Source: Haloarcula rubripromontorii (GTDB lineage Archaea; Halobacteriota; Halobacteria; Halobacteriales; Haloarculaceae). Taken from it: a stretch of DNA of 64,000 nucleotides. Under the pieces are notes generated by a model. It saw nothing but the letters and a program-made list of their open reading frames with translations, did no database searches and was not told the DNA's origin. Position numbers and translations under genes: made by a program. The stretch covers positions 806,001 through 870,000 of the forward strand of contig NZ_LIUF01000002.1 in assembly GCF_001280425.1 (NCBI RefSeq), read 5' to 3'. Below, piece after piece: positions 19,518 through 27,961 of the stretch (its first letter is position 1; each line of letters begins with the position of its first letter).

Positions 19518-19931
19518 CTCCTGTCGCCCAGTACTGGCTTAGAGGACTTTTTTCGAACAAAAGCGTCTCCGTGAGATTCTCTACGGGCCGTTGAGCCGTC
19601 ACGGGCTGTTGTGTCCATAACGGCGCATATTCAGTGCCCGGATTTCCACACTGCAGCCCCGGATTCAATGAAATTATAGAGATTTGATGTATGTACCTCT
19701 TCACAGCACGCCATTATATCACAGTATCCGTATTAACGGCTGCATATCCACTCTGTTACCAGTATCGCAAGATGGAGAATGTGTGTGTGTTATGGTTTAT
19801 TATATTTCACTTCCTTTTCGACCGACGCCGCTTCGGACCTGTAACTGTCCCCGTTCACATCGGAATAGCTACTGTTACGTGTGAACGAGTGTCGCACAAA
19901 CAATAAGTATCTACCATGTCAGACTTCGCAT
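19518..19931. other. Intergenic region between livF and microprotein A
   Basis: 414 bases, AT-rich after 19680. It holds the presumed livF terminator T-run, and GTGTGAACG at 19880-19888, a box also found upstream of microprotein B. A TATA-like AATAAG near 19902-19907 is set about 28 nt before microprotein A. Otherwise I see no gene. Confidence 0.45.
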
Positions 19932-20054
19932 ATGCATCCGGGCTTGAACCCTACCGCCTGCCCTGCAGGTCAGCTGTCCCGGCAGTTAATGGACTGGGCA
20001 CTGCCCTCCGCCACAGCCCCGTCTTTTACATTTTCGACATTTAAACTGGCGTAG
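19932..20054 (+). CDS. Leaderless microprotein, copy A (M-x-P-G family)
   Basis: A 40-codon gene: begins MHPGLNPTAC, has LSRQLM in the middle and SFTFSTFKLA at the end. Two other genes in this window (26347-26454 minus, 26605-26709 plus) share M-x-P-G, S-R-[QHK]-[LA]-[MI] and [FY]-T-F-[FS] in the same order although their DNA has diverged, which supports coding. A TATA-like AATAAG lies about 28 nt upstream, so the start codon is near the transcript 5' end. The TAG stop lies inside the conserved GTAGACC box of the stem element that follows. No known domain is recognised. The 2-oxoacid dehydrogenase E1 alpha gene begins 144 bases after the stop. Confidence 0.5.
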   Translation: MHPGLNPTACPAGQLSRQLMDWALPSATAPSFTFSTFKLA

Positions 20055-20100
20055 ACCGCTAGCGCACAGGAGGTCCCTGTGCCCTGGTGGAAAACGCCAG
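20046..20100 (+). repeat. Stem element A with GTAGACC and GGTGGAAAAC boxes
   Basis: A 55-nt element. Outer arms CTGGCGT (20046-20052) and ACGCCAG (20094-20100) pair fully; an inner stem GCACAGG/CCTGTGC is closed by a 5-base loop. GTAGACC and GGTGGAAAAC flank the inner stem and recur in copies at 26301-26355 and 26711-26766. Arm bases differ between copies A and B by a compensatory pair (G-C versus A-T). It may be an RNA regulatory element or processing/termination structure; its function is unknown. Confidence 0.6.
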
Positions 20101-20197: not shown

Positions 20198-21346
20198 ATG
20201 AACATGAAAAACGAAGCAGGAAACACGGACTTGCCAGCGCCCGTCAGACAAGACTCGGAGCTAGTCCAGGTACTGGATGCTGAAGGCAACGTATTACCGC
20301 AGGCGTCTGTCCCGGATCTCTCAGACAGGGAGTTACTTGAGCTGTATGAGACAATCAAGCTCGCCCGTCACTTCGATCAGCGGGCGATCAGCTTCCAGCG
20401 ACAGGGACGACTGGCGACGTACGCACCAATGACCGGGCAGGAGGGGTCACAGGTCGCCACGAGCATGGCGCTTGCCGAGCAAGACTGGCTGTTCCCAACT
20501 TACAGAGAGCACGCGGCAAAGTACGCTCACGGAATGGAGCTGGCATCCCTCTTCGAACCACTGCGAGGCTATCGGGACGGATATGCAATCCCTGAAGATG
20601 TCAACGTGATGCCTGAGTATATTCCGATAGCGACTCAGGTTCCGCAGGCTATGGGAATGGCCTGGGGACACAAGCTACAGGGAAAGACCGATACGGCCGT
20701 CCTGTGTCACCTCGGTGATGGTGCGACCTCCGAAGGAGACTTCCACGAAGGACTGAATTTCGCCGGTGTATTCGACGTCCCTGCTGTGTTCGTCTGTAAC
20801 AACAATCAATGGGCGATTTCGGTCCCGCGAGAGCGACAGACTGCGAGCGAAACCATCGCTACAAAGGCACAGGCATACGGTATCGACAGCGTTCGTGTCG
20901 ACGGGCTGGACCCGCTCGCGGTCTACAAAGTCACCAGTGAGGCACTGGAGAAAGCTCGGAATCCGGCTCCCGGTGAGCTGCGGCCAACGCTTATCGAATC
21001 TGTCCAGTATCGCTTCGGCGCTCACACCACTGCGGATGACCCGTCCGTTTACAGAGACGAATCGGAGGAGGAGGCCTGGCGAGACCGCGACCCAGTGGAC
21101 CGCATCGAAAAGTACCTCTACAACGAGGATATCCTCGATTCGGACCTCGAAAGTGAGATCCAAGACCGAATCGAACAGGCGGTCAGCGAAGCGATAGAGA
21201 CAGCCGAACAGACGGAGACGAGTCCGGACAACATCGTTGAGCACGTGTACGACGACGTTCCGGCACGACTCGAAGAACAGCGGGACGAACTGAACCGACT
21301 GCGGGAAAAGTACGACGACGGCGCGTTCTCGGAGGTGCTGGAATGA
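20198..21346 (+). CDS. 2-oxoacid dehydrogenase E1 component, alpha subunit
   Basis: A 382-residue ThDP-binding alpha subunit of a pyruvate/branched-chain 2-oxoacid dehydrogenase complex. Markers: YETIKLARHFDQRAISFQRQG, PTYREHAA, the ThDP motif CHLGDGATSEGDFHEGLNFAGVF ending with VFVCNNNQWAIS, and the phosphorylation-loop region RFGAHTTADDPSVYR. The ATG at 20198 follows a TATA-like AATATA (20174-20179) at about 22-25 nt. Four genes follow in tight coupling to make the whole complex. Adjacency to Liv transport genes and an aminotransferase points to branched-chain 2-oxoacids rather than pyruvate, but this is inference. Confidence 0.88.
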   Translation: MNMKNEAGNTDLPAPVRQDSELVQVLDAEGNVLPQASVPDLSDRELLELYETIKLARHFDQRAISFQRQGRLATYAPMTGQEGSQVATSMALAEQDWLFPTYREHAAKYAHGMELASLFEPLRGYRDGYAIPEDVNVMPEYIPIATQVPQAMGMAWGHKLQGKTDTAVLCHLGDGATSEGDFHEGLNFAGVFDVPAVFVCNNNQWAISVPRERQTASETIATKAQAYGIDSVRVDGLDPLAVYKVTSEALEKARNPAPGELRPTLIESVQYRFGAHTTADDPSVYRDESEEEAWRDRDPVDRIEKYLYNEDILDSDLESEIQDRIEQAVSEAIETAEQTETSPDNIVEHVYDDVPARLEEQRDELNRLREKYDDGAFSEVLE

Positions 21347-22359
21347 GTTCGACAGCCAGCACGCAGTCGGGGCAAACGGTTCAGCGTCTCGCTCTCGTGG
21401 AGGCGATACAGGACGGGTTGTACACTGAAATGGCACAGGACGACAGCGTCGTCGTGCTGGGCGAAGATGTCGGAAAGAACGGCGGTGTCTTCAGAGCGAC
21501 CGACCAGCTCTACGAGGAGTTCGGTGAAGACCGCGTCATCGACACGCCACTGGCAGAAGCCGGAATTATCGGGGCTTCGATTGGACTTGCCCAGACCGGC
21601 ATGAAGCCCGTTCCCGAGATGCAGTTCATGGGCTTCATGTATCCTGCCTTCGATCAGATTGTCAGTCACGCCGCTCGCCTTCGGAGCCGTAGCCAGGGAC
21701 AGTATTCGGTGCCGATGGTGATACGGGCTCCGTACGGCGGTGGCATCCGAGCCCCAGAACACCACTCCGAGTCGAAGGAAGCGTTCTTCGTGCACGAGCC
21801 CGGTCTCAAGGTCGTCTCGCCGAGTACCCCCTACGATGCAAAGGGACTGCTGGCGGCGTCCATCCACGACCCGGATCCAGTCATCTTCCTGGAGCCGAAG
21901 TTGATCTACCGCGCCTTCCGTGAAGATGTCCCGACGAAACCGTATGCCGTGTCGCTGAGTGAGGCTGCTGTCCGGCGGGAGGGGAACGACATCTCAGTCT
22001 ACACTTGGGGCGCGATGACCCGGCCGGCACTGATTGCTGCGGAGAATCTGAGCCAGTCGCATGGCATCGATGCCGAAGTCATCGACCTGCGAACCCTGTC
22101 TCCCCTCGATATAGAGACGATCACCGACTCGTTTAAAAAGACCGGGCGAGCCGCGATTGTCCACGAAGCACCGAAGACTGGCGGATTGGGAGCCGAAATC
22201 GCAACGACGATTCAGGAGGAAGCGCTCGTGCATCAGGAAGCGCCGATCAAGCGAATCGCCGGCTTCGATGCCCCCATGCCACTCCACTCGTTAGAGGACT
22301 ACTACCTGCCACAGGCGGTCCGTATCCAGGACGGAATTCGCGAAACGGTCGACTTCTAA
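21343..22359 (+). CDS. 2-oxoacid dehydrogenase E1 component, beta subunit
   Basis: A 338-residue transketolase-type beta subunit. It shows LVEAIQDGLYTEMAQDDSVVVLGEDVGKNGGVFRATDQL, then DTPLAEAGIIGASIGLAQTGMKPVPEMQFMGF, the GGGIRAPEHHSES loop and a C-terminal swivel domain with EVIDLRTLSPLD and IVHEAPKTGGLGAEI. It forms an alpha2beta2 heterotetramer with the alpha subunit and decarboxylates the 2-oxoacid, passing the acyl group to the E2 lipoyl arm. The start overlaps the alpha stop by four bases. Confidence 0.9.
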   Translation: MSSTASTQSGQTVQRLALVEAIQDGLYTEMAQDDSVVVLGEDVGKNGGVFRATDQLYEEFGEDRVIDTPLAEAGIIGASIGLAQTGMKPVPEMQFMGFMYPAFDQIVSHAARLRSRSQGQYSVPMVIRAPYGGGIRAPEHHSESKEAFFVHEPGLKVVSPSTPYDAKGLLAASIHDPDPVIFLEPKLIYRAFREDVPTKPYAVSLSEAAVRREGNDISVYTWGAMTRPALIAAENLSQSHGIDAEVIDLRTLSPLDIETITDSFKKTGRAAIVHEAPKTGGLGAEIATTIQEEALVHQEAPIKRIAGFDAPMPLHSLEDYYLPQAVRIQDGIRETVDF

Positions 22360-22360
22360 C

Positions 22361-23875
22361 ATGGTACGCGAATTCGAACTCCCCGATGTCGGTGAAGGCG
22401 TCGCCGAGGGCGAACTGCTTCGCTGGCGCGTTGCGCCGGGCGACGCAGTTTCGGAAGACCAGCCAGTAGCGGAAGTCGAGACCGACAAAGCCGTCGTTGA
22501 TGTTCCGTCCCCAGTCGACGGTGTCGTCGAAGAACTCCGTGCTACGGAAGGTGAGGTTGTCCCGGTCGGTGATGTGATTGTCGTCTTCCGGGTAGATGGT
22601 GAAACCGACTCAGACGGAACCGAAGTAACGCCTCCAGATGACGCCACCTCGGAAAGTGGCCAGCAGACCGATGACGAAGCTGCACCACAGCCAGCCGGAG
22701 ATGCGCAGTCAGATCCAGCGGTGACCCAGAGCGTCCAAATCCCCGCACCGCCGTCCGTACGGCGTCTCGCCCGGGAACTAGGCGTTGATATTTCCAGCAT
22801 TGCAGATTCGTCTCCCGGGCGTATAACGGAATCGGATGTCCGCGCGTACGCGAGCGAGTCCTCAACTCAGGAACGTTCAAGTCACCAGACCGCGGCTGCA
22901 AAGCAACGAGAACAGCAGCCAGCCCCGGCGCAGTCTGTCAGTTCGGCACAGATGCAAGAAACGGCAGACCGGGAAACGACCGTTGCCGTTCCGAAAACCA
23001 GACACATCGCAGCGGAGGAAGGAATTGACCTCAATACCGTTCCCACCGATGAACGAAAAGACGGCGAACCCTTTGTCACGCTCGAAACGGTCCGGGAGTA
23101 CGCAGAGGCACAGAAAACGGATCGAGAAGCGGTAACCAAGAGAGAAGCGACAGACGAGCCAGCGCGCCCGGAATCTCGGAAACCGTACAACGGGATCAGG
23201 CAGTCGATTGGATCGGCGATGACATCGTCGAAATACACGGCCCCGCACGTCACCCATCAGGACGAGGTCGATGTCACCGCTCTGGTCGACGCCCGCTCGG
23301 ACCTCAAACAGGAGGCCGAGGAGCACGATATCCGACTGACGTATCTGCCGTTCGTGATGAAAGCGTGCGCCGCGGCCTTACAAGAGAACCCACAGGTAAA
23401 CGTCTCTCTCGACGAAGCAAACGAGGAGATCGTCGAGAAACAGTACTACAATATCGGTGTCGCAACGGCGACTGATGACGGCCTGCTGGTTCCTGTCGTC
23501 GAGGATGTCGATACGAAGGGCCTGCTCGAAGTCGCCGCTGAAACCTACGAAAAGACTCAGAAGGCCAGAGAACGGAGTCTTTCGCCGGAAGAAATGCGTG
23601 GCGGGACATTTACCATCTCGAACATCGGCGGAATAGGCGGGGAGTACGGGACCCCGATCATCAACCAACCGGAGAGCGCCATCCTGGCACTGGGAGAAAT
23701 AAAAAAGAAGCCACGAGTCGTCGAAAGTGATGGTGAGGAGACGATAGAACCCCGCCACGTCATGACCCTCTCGCTGTCGTTCGACCACCGAGTGCTTGAC
23801 GGCGCAGACGCCGCCCAGTTCACGAATGCCGTACAGAAATACCTGCGAAATCCAAATCTGCTACTACTAGAATAA
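22361..23875 (+). CDS. 2-oxoacid dehydrogenase E2, dihydrolipoamide acyltransferase
   Basis: 504 residues. Domains in order: one lipoyl domain (residues 1-80, lipoyl Lys in VETDKAVVDVPSP near 43) and a long acidic linker. Next come a peripheral subunit-binding domain (PSVRRLARELGVDI, near 129-163), a second Ala/Pro/Gln-rich linker, and a second segment of the same type (KTRHIAAEEGIDL, near 207-245). The catalytic acyltransferase domain (from about 270) carries the conserved His-Asp pair in FDHRVLDGADAAQF near the end. The doubled subunit-binding region is unusual. One base separates it from E1 beta, and its stop overlaps the E3 start. Confidence 0.9.
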   Translation: MVREFELPDVGEGVAEGELLRWRVAPGDAVSEDQPVAEVETDKAVVDVPSPVDGVVEELRATEGEVVPVGDVIVVFRVDGETDSDGTEVTPPDDATSESGQQTDDEAAPQPAGDAQSDPAVTQSVQIPAPPSVRRLARELGVDISSIADSSPGRITESDVRAYASESSTQERSSHQTAAAKQREQQPAPAQSVSSAQMQETADRETTVAVPKTRHIAAEEGIDLNTVPTDERKDGEPFVTLETVREYAEAQKTDREAVTKREATDEPARPESRKPYNGIRQSIGSAMTSSKYTAPHVTHQDEVDVTALVDARSDLKQEAEEHDIRLTYLPFVMKACAAALQENPQVNVSLDEANEEIVEKQYYNIGVATATDDGLLVPVVEDVDTKGLLEVAAETYEKTQKARERSLSPEEMRGGTFTISNIGGIGGEYGTPIINQPESAILALGEIKKKPRVVESDGEETIEPRHVMTLSLSFDHRVLDGADAAQFTNAVQKYLRNPNLLLLE

Positions 23876-25308
23876 TGGTTGTCGGAGATGTAACTACGTC
23901 GACTGACGTACTGGTTATTGGGGCGGGTCCCGGCGGATACGCCGCCGCAATCCGCGCTGCACAGCTTGACCTCGATGTCACGCTCGTGGAAAAGGAAGCG
24001 TATGGCGGTGCCTGTCTCAACCGTGGCTGTATTCCCTCAAAGGCGCTGATAAACGGTTCAAAACTGGCTTCGAAGGCGGGCAACTCGGAGGAACTGGGAA
24101 TTTACGCAGACCCGACGGTTGCGCTTGACGAGATGATGGACTGGAAAGACGGCGTCGTCGATCAATTAACAAGCGGTATCGAACAACTGTGTACGGCAGC
24201 TGGCGTGAACCTGCTGCAAGGGACTGCCGAATTTGCTGCTGAAAACAAGATCAGAATCGTCCATCAGGGTGAGGGACAGGGGTCTGAATCGCTGAAATTC
24301 GAACGCTGCATCATCGCGACAGGGTCCAGACCGGTTGCAATCCCGGGATTCGACTTCGATGACGAGTATATCGTTTCCTCCGCCGGCGCTCTGTCCCTCG
24401 AAACAGTACCCGACGAACTCGCAATCGTTGGAGCCGGATACATCGGCATGGAGCTGGCGACCGTCTACAGCCGACTTGGAAGCGACGTCACGGTCATTGA
24501 GATGCTGGAGCAAGCGCTTCCCAGCTATGAGCGAGACATTGCTTCGGTAGTCCGCCAGCGAGCGGAGAATCTCGGTGTGGATTTCCATTTCGGGTACACT
24601 GCGGATAGCTGGGCGGCGTCTGGTGACAAGGCCGTTCTGACTGCTGTCCCCGCCGACGAAGCGGCAGATGATAGCGATGTAGAGATCACCGCCGAAAAAA
24701 TACTGGTCGCTGTCGGCCGACGTCCGGTGACTGACACGCTCAGTATCGATGCCGCTGGCGTCGAAACCAATTCTCAGGGGTTCATTCCAACGGATAGCAG
24801 GTGCCGGACGAACAAGGAGCATATTTTCGCGGTCGGTGACGTTGCTGGTGAACCGATGCTCGCGCACAAGGGATCGAAAGAAGGGGAAGTTGCGGCGGAA
24901 GTAATCGCCGGCGAACCCGCGGCAGTCGATTATCAGGCCCTCCCGGCTGCCGTGTTTACCGAGCCGGAAATCGGAACTGTCGGGCTCACCACGACCCAAG
25001 CAGCGAACGAGGGTATTACGCCAGTTACAGGTAAGTTCCAGTTTCAGGCGTCTGGCCGGGCACTAACAGCAAACCGGACGGACGGCTTTGTCCGAATTGT
25101 CGCCGCAAAAGAGACCGAACGCGTGATCGGTGCACAGATTGTCGGTCCGGAGGCATCCGAGTTGATTGCAGAAATCGCAGCAATGATCGAAATGGGTGCA
25201 AAGCTTCAAGACATCGGCTCCACGGTCCACACGCATCCAACACTAAGTGAATCAGTAATGGAAGCTGCACAGAACGCAAGAGGGAAAGCGATACATAAAC
25301 GCAACTGA
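23875..25308 (+). CDS. lpdA: 2-oxoacid dehydrogenase E3, dihydrolipoamide dehydrogenase
   Basis: A 477-residue flavoprotein disulfide reductase. FAD motif VIGAGPGGYAAAIRAAQ, redox cysteines in GGACLNRGCIPSKALI (Cys-x4-Cys, near 46-51), NAD motif IVGAGYIGMELATVY, second FAD motif HIFAVGDVAGEPMLAHKG and the C-terminal His-Glu dyad in VHTHPTLSESVMEAA. It reoxidises E2 dihydrolipoamide with NAD. Its ATG overlaps the E2 stop by one base (TAATG), making this the last gene of the operon. Confidence 0.93.
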   Translation: MVVGDVTTSTDVLVIGAGPGGYAAAIRAAQLDLDVTLVEKEAYGGACLNRGCIPSKALINGSKLASKAGNSEELGIYADPTVALDEMMDWKDGVVDQLTSGIEQLCTAAGVNLLQGTAEFAAENKIRIVHQGEGQGSESLKFERCIIATGSRPVAIPGFDFDDEYIVSSAGALSLETVPDELAIVGAGYIGMELATVYSRLGSDVTVIEMLEQALPSYERDIASVVRQRAENLGVDFHFGYTADSWAASGDKAVLTAVPADEAADDSDVEITAEKILVAVGRRPVTDTLSIDAAGVETNSQGFIPTDSRCRTNKEHIFAVGDVAGEPMLAHKGSKEGEVAAEVIAGEPAAVDYQALPAAVFTEPEIGTVGLTTTQAANEGITPVTGKFQFQASGRALTANRTDGFVRIVAAKETERVIGAQIVGPEASELIAEIAAMIEMGAKLQDIGSTVHTHPTLSESVMEAAQNARGKAIHKRN

Positions 25309-25946: not shown

Positions 25947-26222
25947 TCAGATATTGGGGTACTGCGATGTCATGCATTCCTCTTCACAGAAAAAATGCTC
26001 TGTTATCTCTCCGTCTGAGTCTCGTATCGTTAGACCGCTGTACCTCATCTGTTCGCTGATCACCTGCCCACAGTAGTCGCAACGGTAGGTCGGTGACCCA
26101 CCAACCAAGACTCGGGTCGACTTGTTTGTGACAATCAGTTCGGCAGTGGTTGTGTTGCCGCTGACTTCCATAGCGCGGCGACCGGTTGCTAGCGACTTTT
26201 CTGCGTCAGTTTGTCCATTCAT
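25947..26222 (-). CDS. Small zinc-finger protein, paralogue 1 (CxxCG...FCxxxC)
   Basis: 91 residues. The C-terminal half has a four-Cys metal site, RCDYCGQVI followed 25 residues later by HFFCEEEC, and between them a beta-rich stretch (MRYSGLTIRDSDGEITE). It matches gene 26868-27146 along its length, and the shared N-terminus MN[GA]Q fixes the start at 26222 rather than the upstream in-frame codon at 26273. It resembles small haloarchaeal treble-clef/CPxCG-like proteins (DUF7576 type), whose roles are largely unknown. A microprotein gene and a stem element lie just upstream on the same strand. Confidence 0.7.
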   Translation of the reverse strand: MNGQTDAEKSLATGRRAMEVSGNTTTAELIVTNKSTRVLVGGSPTYRCDYCGQVISEQMRYSGLTIRDSDGEITEHFFCEEECMTSQYPNI

Positions 26223-26300: not shown

Positions 26301-26355
26301 CCGACGTTTTCCACCGATGCGGGGGTTCTGCCCGGACTGCGATGGTCTACGCGGG
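26301..26355 (-). repeat. Stem element C with GTAGACC and GGTGGAAAAC boxes
   Basis: Minus-strand copy of the 55-nt element. Arms CCCGCGT (26355-26349) and ACGTCGG (26307-26301) pair with one mismatch and one wobble. GTAGACC (26350-26344) and GGTGGAAAACG are identical to the other copies, while the inner sequence differs. It overlaps the stop codon of microprotein C and ends 79 bases before zinc-finger paralogue 1. Confidence 0.55.
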
Positions 26356-26454
26356 GTACAGAGCAGGCGGTGTAAAAAACGTATAACCGGTCGCTACGGC
26401 GATTGCTGCCATCGCTTTCCGGGACGCTTCTCTCGTCGGGAAACCCGGCTCCAT
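26347..26454 (-). CDS. Leaderless microprotein, copy C (M-x-P-G family)
   Basis: 35 codons: starts MEPGFPTREASRKAM, continues AAIAVATGYTFFTPPALYPA and stops at a TAG inside the GTAGACC box. It shares M-x-P-G, S-R-K-A-M and Y-T-F-F with copies A and B. A TATA-like TTAAATA (minus strand, 26482-26476) is about 27 nt upstream, which places the ATG at the transcript start. An AACCA-TT-TGGTT inverted repeat lies next to that box. The gene is divergent from copy B, with 150 bases between the start codons, and lies upstream of zinc-finger paralogue 1. Confidence 0.5.
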   Translation of the reverse strand: MEPGFPTREASRKAMAAIAVATGYTFFTPPALYPA

Positions 26455-26604
26455 GTACCAACATAACAAATTATTGTATTTAACCATTTGGTTAGTTCCT
26501 CTCAACCCATCCACTGAGATGTGGCCGTCTGCAAACCCGGATACTTGCTGGGTGTGAACGTCACTCACATAATTATTAAGTGTACATCCAGTGAAATTGC
26601 GCCT
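26455..26604. promoter_or_regulatory. Divergent promoter region between microproteins C and B
   Basis: 150 bases with two TATA-like boxes: minus-strand TTAAATA at 26476-26482 for copy C, and plus-strand ATTATTAAG near 26572-26580 for copy B. GTGTGAACG at 26552-26560 also occurs upstream of copy A at a similar distance from its TATA box, so it may be a regulator site. Confidence 0.45.
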
Positions 26605-26709
26605 ATGAATCCGGGCGTCGACTGTACGGCTTGGAAAGCAAGCCCGCTGTCCCGGCACTTGATCGGTACGGATCGTTCTACATCCGGTTTTACATTTTTC
26701 AAATTTTAA
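26605..26709 (+). CDS. Leaderless microprotein, copy B (M-x-P-G family)
   Basis: 34 codons: begins MNPGVDCTAWKAS, then PLSRHLIG, ending TSGFTFFKF and TAA. It aligns with copy A over its whole length (M-x-P-G, T-A, L-S-R-x-L, F-T-F). The TAA ends just before the outer arm of stem element B, so here the GTAGACC box is outside the frame. A TATA-like ATTATTAAG is about 29 nt upstream. The zinc-finger paralogue 2 gene starts 158 bases after the stop. Confidence 0.5.
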   Translation: MNPGVDCTAWKASPLSRHLIGTDRSTSGFTFFKF

Positions 26710-26710
26710 A

Positions 26711-26766
26711 CTGACGTAGACCACCACAGTGCGGGCAAACGCCCGCACACAGGTGGAAAACGTCAG
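26711..26766 (+). repeat. Stem element B with GTAGACC and GGTGGAAAAC boxes
   Basis: 56 nt. Outer arms CTGACGT (26711-26717) and ACGTCAG (26760-26766) pair fully; inner stem GTGCGGGC/GCCCGCAC is closed by AAAC. The boxes match copies A and C. Against copy A, the fourth arm pair changes from G-C to A-T and the inner stem is replaced by a different, fully paired one, indicating selection for structure. Confidence 0.6.
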
Positions 26767-27230: not shown

Positions 27231-27845
27231 TCATGCGGACTGGCAGTCGCAGCCACTCTGTTCCAGAAACGCGACAACATCGTAGCTACGCCCACAGTCC
27301 TCACACAGCACCTGTAGTTCGTTGATGATGTTGAAATCGCCTGCCGAGATGGCGTCGTTCTTTTCTAGACTCTCGATAGTTTGCCTCGTTACAGCGGTCG
27401 TTCGCCCCCGGAGGCGCTGTACTCTGTCGATGGCACGTTCCTTCCGTTCTGCGGGTGTCTGCTCAGGTCTGGCCGCGCCCCGGTCGTTCTTGAGATAGCG
27501 ATACACCGTCTGGTGGGAGATAAAATCAGCCATCACAGATTCGATATCGACTCCACTCTGTTCGAGGCGGGAGCGTATGAGTGGGGCGTCGGCGTCGTCT
27601 TCACTGAGTGACTGATAGACCTGTTGGATATCGCCACTCAATGTCGGGGCGTCAACCCCTTCGATAGCGGTTTCGAGCACTGATTGATTGAAATAATCCG
27701 CAAGGTCGCGGGTGCTTTGTTCCTCTCCATCGTCACCAACCCATCGGCTCTCGAGTTCTGCACCCATCCCGACAAGACCGTACTTCTGAATCACGGCATC
27801 GACCTTGCTCGTTCCTCCACCGGACTGTGGGTCGTCTGTGGTCAT
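27231..27845 (-). CDS. rdfA: Rod-determining factor RdfA
   Basis: 204 residues. The N-terminal part reads KVDAVIQKYGLVGMGAELESRW, then RDLADYFNQSVLETAI (a helix-turn-helix-like segment). A middle SHQTVYRYLKNDRG follows, then a helical RxxAVTxxTIESL segment and a C-terminal Cys cluster CEDCG...CDC. This layout is that of the haloarchaeal rod-determining factor A family, needed for the rod/motile cell form in Haloferax. The start at 27845 gives the family N-terminus. Its zinc-ribbon end suggests metal binding. It is convergent with zinc-finger paralogue 2. Confidence 0.75.
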   Translation of the reverse strand: MTTDDPQSGGGTSKVDAVIQKYGLVGMGAELESRWVGDDGEEQSTRDLADYFNQSVLETAIEGVDAPTLSGDIQQVYQSLSEDDADAPLIRSRLEQSGVDIESVMADFISHQTVYRYLKNDRGAARPEQTPAERKERAIDRVQRLRGRTTAVTRQTIESLEKNDAISAGDFNIINELQVLCEDCGRSYDVVAFLEQSGCDCQSA

Positions 27846-27961
27846 GATTCGATTTACGTGGTACCCATAGTTACTAAACACTCCCGCATATCCAGAGGCC
27901 CACCGAGGTCCCGCGCACGCAGAGACCTACCAGACCCGTACTCCGGGATATGCTGGCAGAT

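What the first reader, a model, noticed from the sequence alone, without database searches (positions are those of the whole stretch)
26711..26766. 55-nt stem element with fixed GTAGACC and GGTGGAAAAC boxes and compensatory changes
Three copies (20046-20100, 26301-26355, 26711-26766) keep the two boxes exactly, while the outer arms (CTGGCGT/ACGCCAG versus CTGACGT/ACGTCAG) and the inner stems change together and stay paired. In copies A and C the microprotein stop codon TAG is part of the GTAGACC box, hinting at a link between translation termination and RNA folding. This could be a new archaeal riboswitch-like, processing or termination element.
Basis: partly seen in the sequence, partly recalled or inferred. 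Interest (0 to 1): 0.78.

Follow-up and report, generated by a model that had tools for sequence, protein, structure and literature searches.

The report
Archaeal uORF-and-hairpin regulatory mRNA leader
The three repeated hairpins sit in the 5' leaders of co-regulated genes of a salt-loving archaeon, where a tiny reading frame at the very start of the transcript ends at or just before a folded RNA stem, an arrangement like bacterial leader-peptide attenuators, a kind of control not yet known in archaea.

Summary
The three copies are real. Each lies in a 5' leader of about 220-270 nt that is inferred to begin at a leaderless 34-40 codon uORF. Copy A precedes a pyruvate-dehydrogenase-like E1a/E1b/E2/E3 operon; B and C precede divergent DUF7576 zinc-protein genes. 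The uORF body is bridged by CCGGG/CCCGG, its 3' end is an AU-rich tract of rare TTT/ACA/AAA codons, and its stop lies at or within 11 nt upstream of the GTAGACC box. An expanded alignment (22 sequences, three genera) keeps P1-P3 97% paired, with two-sided changes at 7 pairs and an invariant AGA/AAA loop. The same dehydrogenase gene has related uORF leaders in five haloarchaeal families, with a TATA box and usually an operator at fixed distances from the uORF start. No Rfam family matches. The hairpin is not an intrinsic terminator. I favour an attenuator in which uORF translation competes with leader folding or termination. Mechanism, ligand and transcript ends are untested.

The parts
19880..19896 (+). 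operator-like palindrome TGTGA-N7-TCGCA at -52 from the uORF A start codon
19901..19907 (+). TATA-box-like element at -31 from the uORF A start codon
19932..20054 (+). uORF A, 40 codons, MHPGLNPTACPAGQLSRQLMDWALPSATAPSFTFSTFKLA*, stop TAG inside the GTAGACC box
19938..19942 (+). P0 5' strand CCGGG (copy A)
19978..19982 (+). P0 3' strand CCCGG (copy A)
20010..20051 (+). AU-rich 3' end of uORF A (TTT, ACA, AAA codons)
20046..20100 (+). hairpin copy A: P1 CTGGCGT/ACGCCAG, internal loop AGA/AAA, P2, P3
20198..21346 (+). E1 alpha of a pyruvate-dehydrogenase-like complex, first gene after leader A
21343..25308 (+). E1 beta, E2 and E3 genes of the same operon
26347..26454 (-). uORF B, 35 codons, MEPGFPTREASRKAMAAIAVATGYTFFTPPALYPA*, stop TAG in the box
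26301..26355 (-). hairpin copy B, degenerate (z -1.0)
25947..26222 (-). DUF7576-like small CxxC/CxxxC protein gene after leader B
26553..26569 (+). operator-like palindrome TGTGA-N7-TCACA at -52 from the uORF C start codon, in the divergent B/C promoter region
26574..26580 (+). TATA box TATTAAG at -31 from the uORF C start codon
26605..26709 (+). uORF C, 34 codons, MNPGVDCTAWKASPLSRHLIGTDRSTSGFTFFKF*, stop TAA just 5' of the hairpin
26611..26615 (+). P0 5' strand CCGGG (copy C)
26651..26655 (+). P0 3' strand CCCGG (copy C)
26687..26709 (+). U-rich tract at the end of uORF C
26711..26766 (+). hairpin copy C: P1 CTGACGT/ACGTCAG, internal loop AGA/AAA, P2 CCACC/GGTGG, P3
26868..27146 (+). DUF7576 small CxxC/CxxxC protein gene after leader C

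Best explanation
The element is the stem of a cis-acting regulatory 5' leader shared by a haloarchaeal 2-oxoacid dehydrogenase operon and two DUF7576 zinc-protein genes. SHOWN by comparison: it lies in a leader whose only conserved promoter elements stand at the uORF; the 3' part of the uORF is held AU-rich; the uORF stop is placed at the junction of the AU-rich tract and the stem; P0-P3 are RNA helices. INFERRED: transcription starts at the uORF AUG, so that AUG is read first as a leaderless start. The ribosome then runs over P0 and the U-rich, rare-codon tract and terminates at the foot of the hairpin. Ribosome progress and leader folding are mutually exclusive. When the uORF is translated promptly, the U-tract (a termination signal in haloarchaea) is covered and P0 stays open; when translation lags or stalls near the stop, the leader refolds and RNA polymerase terminates, or the main gene is not translated. 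The net effect is attenuation of the downstream gene. The invariant AGA/AAA loop is a likely contact site for a protein, possibly DUF7576 itself (autoregulation). Which state is ON is not known.
For: Promoter: a TATA element at -31/-32 and an operator TGTGA-N7-TCACA at -52/-53 of the uORF ATG recur in A, C, Haloferax-like copies and most relatives; the TATA match is much weaker at the main start codon, 220-273 nt downstream. Stop placement: -11 to +1 nt from the box in 19 of 19 distinct sequences with exact boxes. In genus g8 unrelated stems follow the uORF stop (11 leaders, combined p 5e-5, 5 of 11 at p 0.05 or less). AU-rich tract: TTT for 154 of 195 Phe codons over the uORF groups, against 18% of 73 in seven window genes. 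RNA structure: A5 alignment 96.9% of cells paired, 37 two-sided cells against at most 11 when slid. P0 forms five standard pairs in 37 of 39 leaders, with CTGGG/CCCAG in L173 although this changes two amino acids. T-stretches terminate transcription in Haloferax volcanii (PMC7237163, passages). Coding signal in A and C: pN/pS 0.31 and 0.37.
Against: No transcript, ribosome-profiling or reporter data were available. Coding constraint is absent or weak in other groups: B pN/pS 1.17, g8 0.77, long leaders 0.72. Copy B is degenerate, and one B relative (L185) has lost the box. In many relatives the uORF is longer and runs through the hairpin (52-53 codons), so the stop at the stem is a lineage feature rather than a universal one. 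The G-U bias is not seen in the long-leader alignment (9 G-U versus 11 A-C). The T-runs are short and sit before, not after, the hairpin. No pair of exclusive terminator/antiterminator helices was demonstrated.
Confidence: 0.45

Rival explanations
1. A ligand- or protein-binding element: the hairpin with its invariant AGA/AAA internal loop is recognised by a metabolite or by a protein such as DUF7576, and the uORF is only a by-product of a leaderless promoter. Binding changes stability or translation of the mRNA.
For: The internal loop and its closing pairs are invariant in A5 while P2 and P3 change. The hairpin occurs with this DUF7576 subfamily in the 12 genus g1 genomes, in G031 and G127, and in Haloferax mediterranei, and two of three window copies precede DUF7576 genes.
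Against: The stop codon tracks the stem even where the hairpin sequence is unrelated (genus g8). No conserved aptamer-like junction was found, and Rfam has no match.
Confidence: 0.25
2. The uORF is a genuine microprotein gene (a short hydrophobic FTFF-type peptide); the hairpin is a 3' end or processing structure of its own transcript, and the downstream gene is read through.
For: The peptide looks constrained in A and C (pN/pS 0.31, 0.37), and an FTFFT.KLA ending recurs in Haloferax-like leaders.
Against: B, g8 and long versions lack clear coding constraint. The U-tract lies before the stop codon, so termination there would leave a message without a stop. No conserved promoter is seen for the main gene.
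Confidence: 0.12
3. A processing or stability element: an endonuclease cuts the leader at the hairpin and so sets the amount of main-gene mRNA.
For: A strong hairpin with a symmetric internal loop placed well upstream of the gene.
Against: It does not have the bulge-helix-bulge anatomy of archaeal splicing sites (recalled definition). It does not explain the stop position or the AU-rich end of the uORF.
Confidence: 0.12
4. A DNA-level inverted repeat: a protein-binding site or a remnant of a mobile element.
For: Three copies lie within 7 kb, and two of them flank a divergent promoter region.
Against: G-U rather than A-C wobble is favoured on the gene-sense strand (28 versus 3). The copies sit at a fixed place relative to the uORF. 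A relaxed-box pattern gave only 3 matches in the viral contigs; the two inspected (L257, L258) show no leader context.
Confidence: 0.04

Closest known systems
Bacterial leader-peptide transcription attenuators (trp, pheL, tnaC; recalled)
   Same: Short reading frame at the start of a leader, a structured RNA around its stop codon, an amino-acid or oxoacid metabolism operon downstream; copy C's peptide end is Phe-rich like PheL (recalled).
   Different: No hairpin followed by a U-run; the U-rich tract lies inside the uORF, before the stem; the uORF is leaderless; archaeal polymerase and termination factor; no ligand or control codon established.
Archaeal fluoride riboswitch of Thermococcus kodakarensis (PMC8241225 calls it the only natural riboswitch determined experimentally in archaea; passages)
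   Same: Structured archaeal 5' leader presumed to act in cis.
   Different: Different gene context; no Rfam family matches here; a uORF is central here.
T-stretch and hairpin termination signals of Haloferax volcanii (PMC7237163, passages)
   Same: The U-rich tract resembles the T-stretch signal (95% termination for their expected-site control in the reporter); a hairpin (S12) terminated 59%.
   Different: Here the tract lies near the start of a transcript inside a uORF, and the hairpin comes after it.
DUF7576 (PF24461)
   Same: Both Zn proteins match it (E 2.3e-8, above the curated cut-off; 6.8e-6, just below it).
   Different: It is a protein family of unknown function; nothing links it to RNA except the co-occurrence found here.

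Membership tests
Leader-peptide attenuator | Leader transcript upstream of, and co-transcribed with, the regulated gene | tested here: inconclusive
   Promoter elements at fixed distance from the uORF and a much weaker TATA match at the main ATG; no transcript data
Leader-peptide attenuator | Short translated ORF in the leader | tested here: inconclusive
   pN/pS 0.31 (A) and 0.37 (C), but 1.17 (B), 0.77 (g8), 0.72 (long)
Leader-peptide attenuator | Mutually exclusive hairpins, one of them a terminator stem with a U-run | tested here: not met
   No U-run follows the stem; the terminator scan gives none at the hairpin. A U-tract lies upstream instead
Leader-peptide attenuator | Regulated readthrough in response to a signal | not testable with these tools
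   Needs 3'-end mapping or reporters
Riboswitch | Match to a described aptamer family | tested here: not met
   Rfam 15: no hit in the window or in 10 relatives at E up to 1
Riboswitch | Direct ligand binding | not testable with these tools
   needs a binding assay
Structured RNA (any) | Covarying base pairs beyond controls | tested here: met
   A4: 66 two-sided cells against at most 12 slid; A5: 37 against at most 11
Archaeal bulge-helix-bulge processing site | Two 3-nt bulges on opposite strands around a 4-bp helix (recalled) | tested here: not met
   A symmetric 3x3 loop AGA/AAA between 7-bp and 5-bp helices
Intrinsic terminator | GC-rich stem directly followed by a T-run | tested here: not met
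   Sequences after 20100 and 26766 hold no T-run

The most novel reading that the evidence does not exclude
This is an archaeal transcription attenuator driven by translation of a leaderless leader peptide. A uORF that begins at the transcript's first nucleotides controls termination at a U-tract built into its own codons, with the stop codon set at the foot of a recognition hairpin, and the same switch coordinates a 2-oxoacid dehydrogenase complex with DUF7576 proteins that may bind the hairpin and autoregulate.
Probability: 0.3. Interest if true: 0.9.

Novelty: new variant of a known kind. Interest (0 to 1): 0.72.

Why it matters
[quoted passage not shown] This leader gives a compact candidate in cultivated strains, present on plasmid pHME505 of Haloferax mediterranei ATCC 33500 and pHsi540 of Haloarcula sinaiiensis ATCC 33800. 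It makes the question of whether archaeal ribosomes control RNA polymerase through a leader peptide directly testable. It also ties an uncharacterised zinc-protein family (DUF7576) to a 2-oxoacid dehydrogenase operon of unknown substrate.

Tried and rejected
Weak R1 hits (L211-L218, E 0.001-0.07) are treated as chance; L211-L213 were inspected and L214-L218 were not.

Rejected: an intrinsic terminator made by the hairpin; a bulge-helix-bulge site; the TAG-in-box claim for copy C; a leader around the second, paralogous E1a of the same genome (L300, none seen on reading its upstream sequence). A terminator-like match in leader C (26669-26686) did not look conserved in related C leaders on reading the sequences.

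Rows dropped: alignment A5 leaves out all B copies, which pair worse (A4 keeps 11 of them). L185 (degenerate B) was left out of A2, A4 and the pN/pS count. L146 and L175-L178 were left out as identical hairpins. In one search, 23 distinct leaders were scored: 22 show the long-range helix, some weakly, and L160 does not. Leaders filtered out there were scored (6 of 7; L159 does not). One C leader (L178) was missed by the main-start pattern. The p-values combine related sequences and are not independent.

Not done: structure prediction of DUF7576; a full-leader covariance model.

Full report
OBSERVATION. The two-box pattern GTAGACC-N-GGTGGAAAAC occurs three times in the window and in none of 100 shuffles. 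The hairpins are 20046-20100 (+, copy A), 26301-26355 (-, copy B) and 26711-26766 (+, copy C). A and C fold with z -6.7 and -9.2; B reaches only -1.0. The common plan is P1 (7 bp), a symmetric internal loop AGA/AAA, P2 (CCRYY/GGTGG, 5 bp), a second loop, and P3. No Rfam family matches the window.

WHERE IT SITS. Each copy is in a 5' leader. A precedes E1a (start 20198), E1b, E2 and E3 of a pyruvate-dehydrogenase-like complex; E1a passes the TIGR03181 cut-off. B and C precede two divergent DUF7576 genes (26222 minus, 26868 plus; B's protein scores just below the curated cut-off). Upstream lie a branched-chain-type ABC transporter and an aminotransferase. Each hairpin is preceded by a uORF: A 40 codons, B 35, C 34. 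In all 19 distinct copies with exact boxes, the uORF stop lies between -11 and +1 nt of the box.

PROMOTER AND LEADER START. A TATA-like element stands at -31/-32 of the uORF ATG. An operator-like palindrome TGTGA-N7-TCACA stands at -52 in A (11 of 11 distinct upstream regions within 2 mismatches) and C (12 of 12), in three Haloferax-like copies (two at -52, one at -54), and at -52/-53 in most related leaders. It is not found in B, and only weakly or not at all in genus g8. The TATA match at the main gene's start is much weaker (4.6 against 7.0 of 7 for A, 4.3 against 6.5 for C). The main ATG lies 220-273 nt downstream of the uORF ATG. From this I infer a leaderless uORF. No transcript data were available.

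DISTRIBUTION. The exact pattern was found in 12 of 391 class genomes, all of the window's genus g1. Model R1 found three copies in each of those 12 (of 24 genus genomes sampled) and one each in G031 and G127 of another family (E about 1e-14). Eight further genomes gave single hits at E 0.001-0.07, taken as chance. Of 32 genus g1 genomes, 12 hold the E1a ortholog at 90% identity or more and the same 12 hold both DUF7576 genes. All 12 A leaders and all 12 C leaders carry the hairpin; one of the 12 B leaders (L185) has lost the box. Named hosts are Haloarcula sinaiiensis plasmid pHsi540 (A, B and C) and Haloferax mediterranei plasmid pHME505 (one copy, upstream of a DUF7576 gene about 8 kb from pdhA). 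The genus name Haloarcula for g1 is inferred from 85-91% identity.

RNA STRUCTURE. On 32 sequences (A4) the 19 pairs are 91.3% paired, with 66 two-sided cells against at most 12 when the partners are slid. On 22 sequences without B (A5) the figures are 96.9%, 37 and at most 11, and 7 pairs have two-sided changes. The Haloferax-like copies change P2 to CTGCC/GGCAG and CTACC/GGTAG and keep the AGA/AAA loop. On the gene-sense strand wobble is 28 G-U against 3 A-C cells in A5. A second helix, P0, joins CCGGG at +7 to CCCGG at +47 (A, C, L209), +44 (L260) or +32 (B). It has five standard pairs in 37 of 39 leaders scored, one of them (L260) with a wobble, and is imperfect in L185 and L210 at the positions scored. 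In L173 both strands changed together (CTGGG/CCCAG), altering Pro to Leu and Arg to Gln. L210 carries TCGGG and CCCGA one base out of that register (read).

THE uORF. pN/pS is 0.31 for A and 0.37 for C (shifted frames 0.82-1.25), but 1.17 for B, 0.77 for genus g8 and 0.72 for the longer relatives. A coding constraint is therefore suggested only in A and C. The last 42 nt average GC 0.30-0.49 by group against 0.57-0.64 in the body. Phe is coded by TTT in 154 of 195 cases, against 18% of 73 in seven window genes. So the 3' end is held AU-rich beyond what the peptide needs.

WIDER FAMILY. In genus g8 all seven E1a leaders and four DUF7576 leaders examined have a uORF whose stop lies next to a stem of unrelated sequence. 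Stem strength after the stop is above shuffles overall (combined p 5e-5; 5 of 11 at p 0.05 or less). E1a orthologs (E up to 1e-55) occur in 43 of 391 class genomes and 14 genera. Their leaders outside g1 and g8 begin mostly with ATGGNNNCCGCCAG. A strand often just after an AU-rich tract (TTTACATTTAMACTGGCGG) is complementary to it in 22 of 23 distinct leaders (some weakly), plus 6 of 7 scored later; the misses, L160 and L159, are both of genus g12. Extension bases change in step (TTCCGCCAG/CTGGCGGAA, CTCCGCCAGT/ACTGGCGGAG, GTCAGT/ACTGAC). An 11-sequence alignment of long leaders supports three helices (90.5% paired; 9 two-sided cells against at most 4 slid), although there G-U shows no excess over A-C (9 against 11). 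In these the uORF runs on through the hairpin (52-53 codons). In the genus with 31-32 codon uORFs it stops just before the stem strand. Homology of the short and long leaders rests on gene position, promoter spacing and the ...TF.LA / CTGGCG segment, and is an inference.

LINK TO DUF7576. In a further family (f8) a DUF7576-like gene lies directly after E1b of the same cluster. In H. mediterranei the cluster shares the M24, epimerase, TPP-enzyme, aminotransferase, E1a and E1b genes with the window. This ties DUF7576 to the pathway independently of the hairpin.

MECHANISM. I commit to an attenuator: ribosome progress along a leaderless uORF competes with leader folding, and premature termination at the U-tract (or loss of main-gene translation) is the OFF state. 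Supporting knowledge: T-stretches terminate transcription in H. volcanii, with 95% termination reported for a reporter site, and a hairpin gave 59% (PMC7237163, passages). Against a bacterial-type design, no U-run follows the hairpin. The conserved internal loop leaves room for a binding protein. DUF7576 is my first candidate, by co-occurrence only.

NOVELTY. PMC8448881 (passages) states that no transcription attenuation or antitermination mechanism was known in archaea in 2021. PMC8241225 (passages) names one natural archaeal riboswitch determined by experiment. My searches (listings) showed no archaeal leader-peptide attenuator in the held library, which lacks most subscription journals. PMC8116511 and PMC8305020 were read as passages only.

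Noticed in passing
window 19880-19896 and 26553-26569: A palindrome TGTGA-N7-TCACA at a fixed -52/-53 from the uORF starts recurs upstream of orthologous genes in several haloarchaeal families: a likely operator of a shared regulator (an IclR-family gene lies nearby in Haloferax mediterranei).
   Followed up: partly
L248, L269, L270 (family f8): A DUF7576-like gene follows E1 beta directly in a third arrangement, suggesting DUF7576 is a functional partner of this dehydrogenase.
   Followed up: partly
L274, L278, L283, L262 (after the uORF stop): A conserved block near CGTTCCCANCGATCCCGGGGTNACCCAGACCGGCCGTGGTACAG lies between the long uORF and the E1 alpha start; CTGGG/CCCAG may close it. Possibly a second RNA domain.
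   Followed up: partly
L150-L156, L180, L184: A second small hairpin with a CGTTGGCACCG/CGTTGCCAGCG-like loop lies downstream of the uORF stop in genus g8 leaders.
   Followed up: no
L141-L149, copy A relatives: CTGGC of P1 can also pair locally with GCCAG inside the hairpin (CTGGCGTAGACTGCCAG) in several A leaders, a possible alternative fold.
   Followed up: no
window 27234-27848 (-): Rod-determining factor RdfA gene next to the DUF7576 gene of copy C.
   Followed up: no
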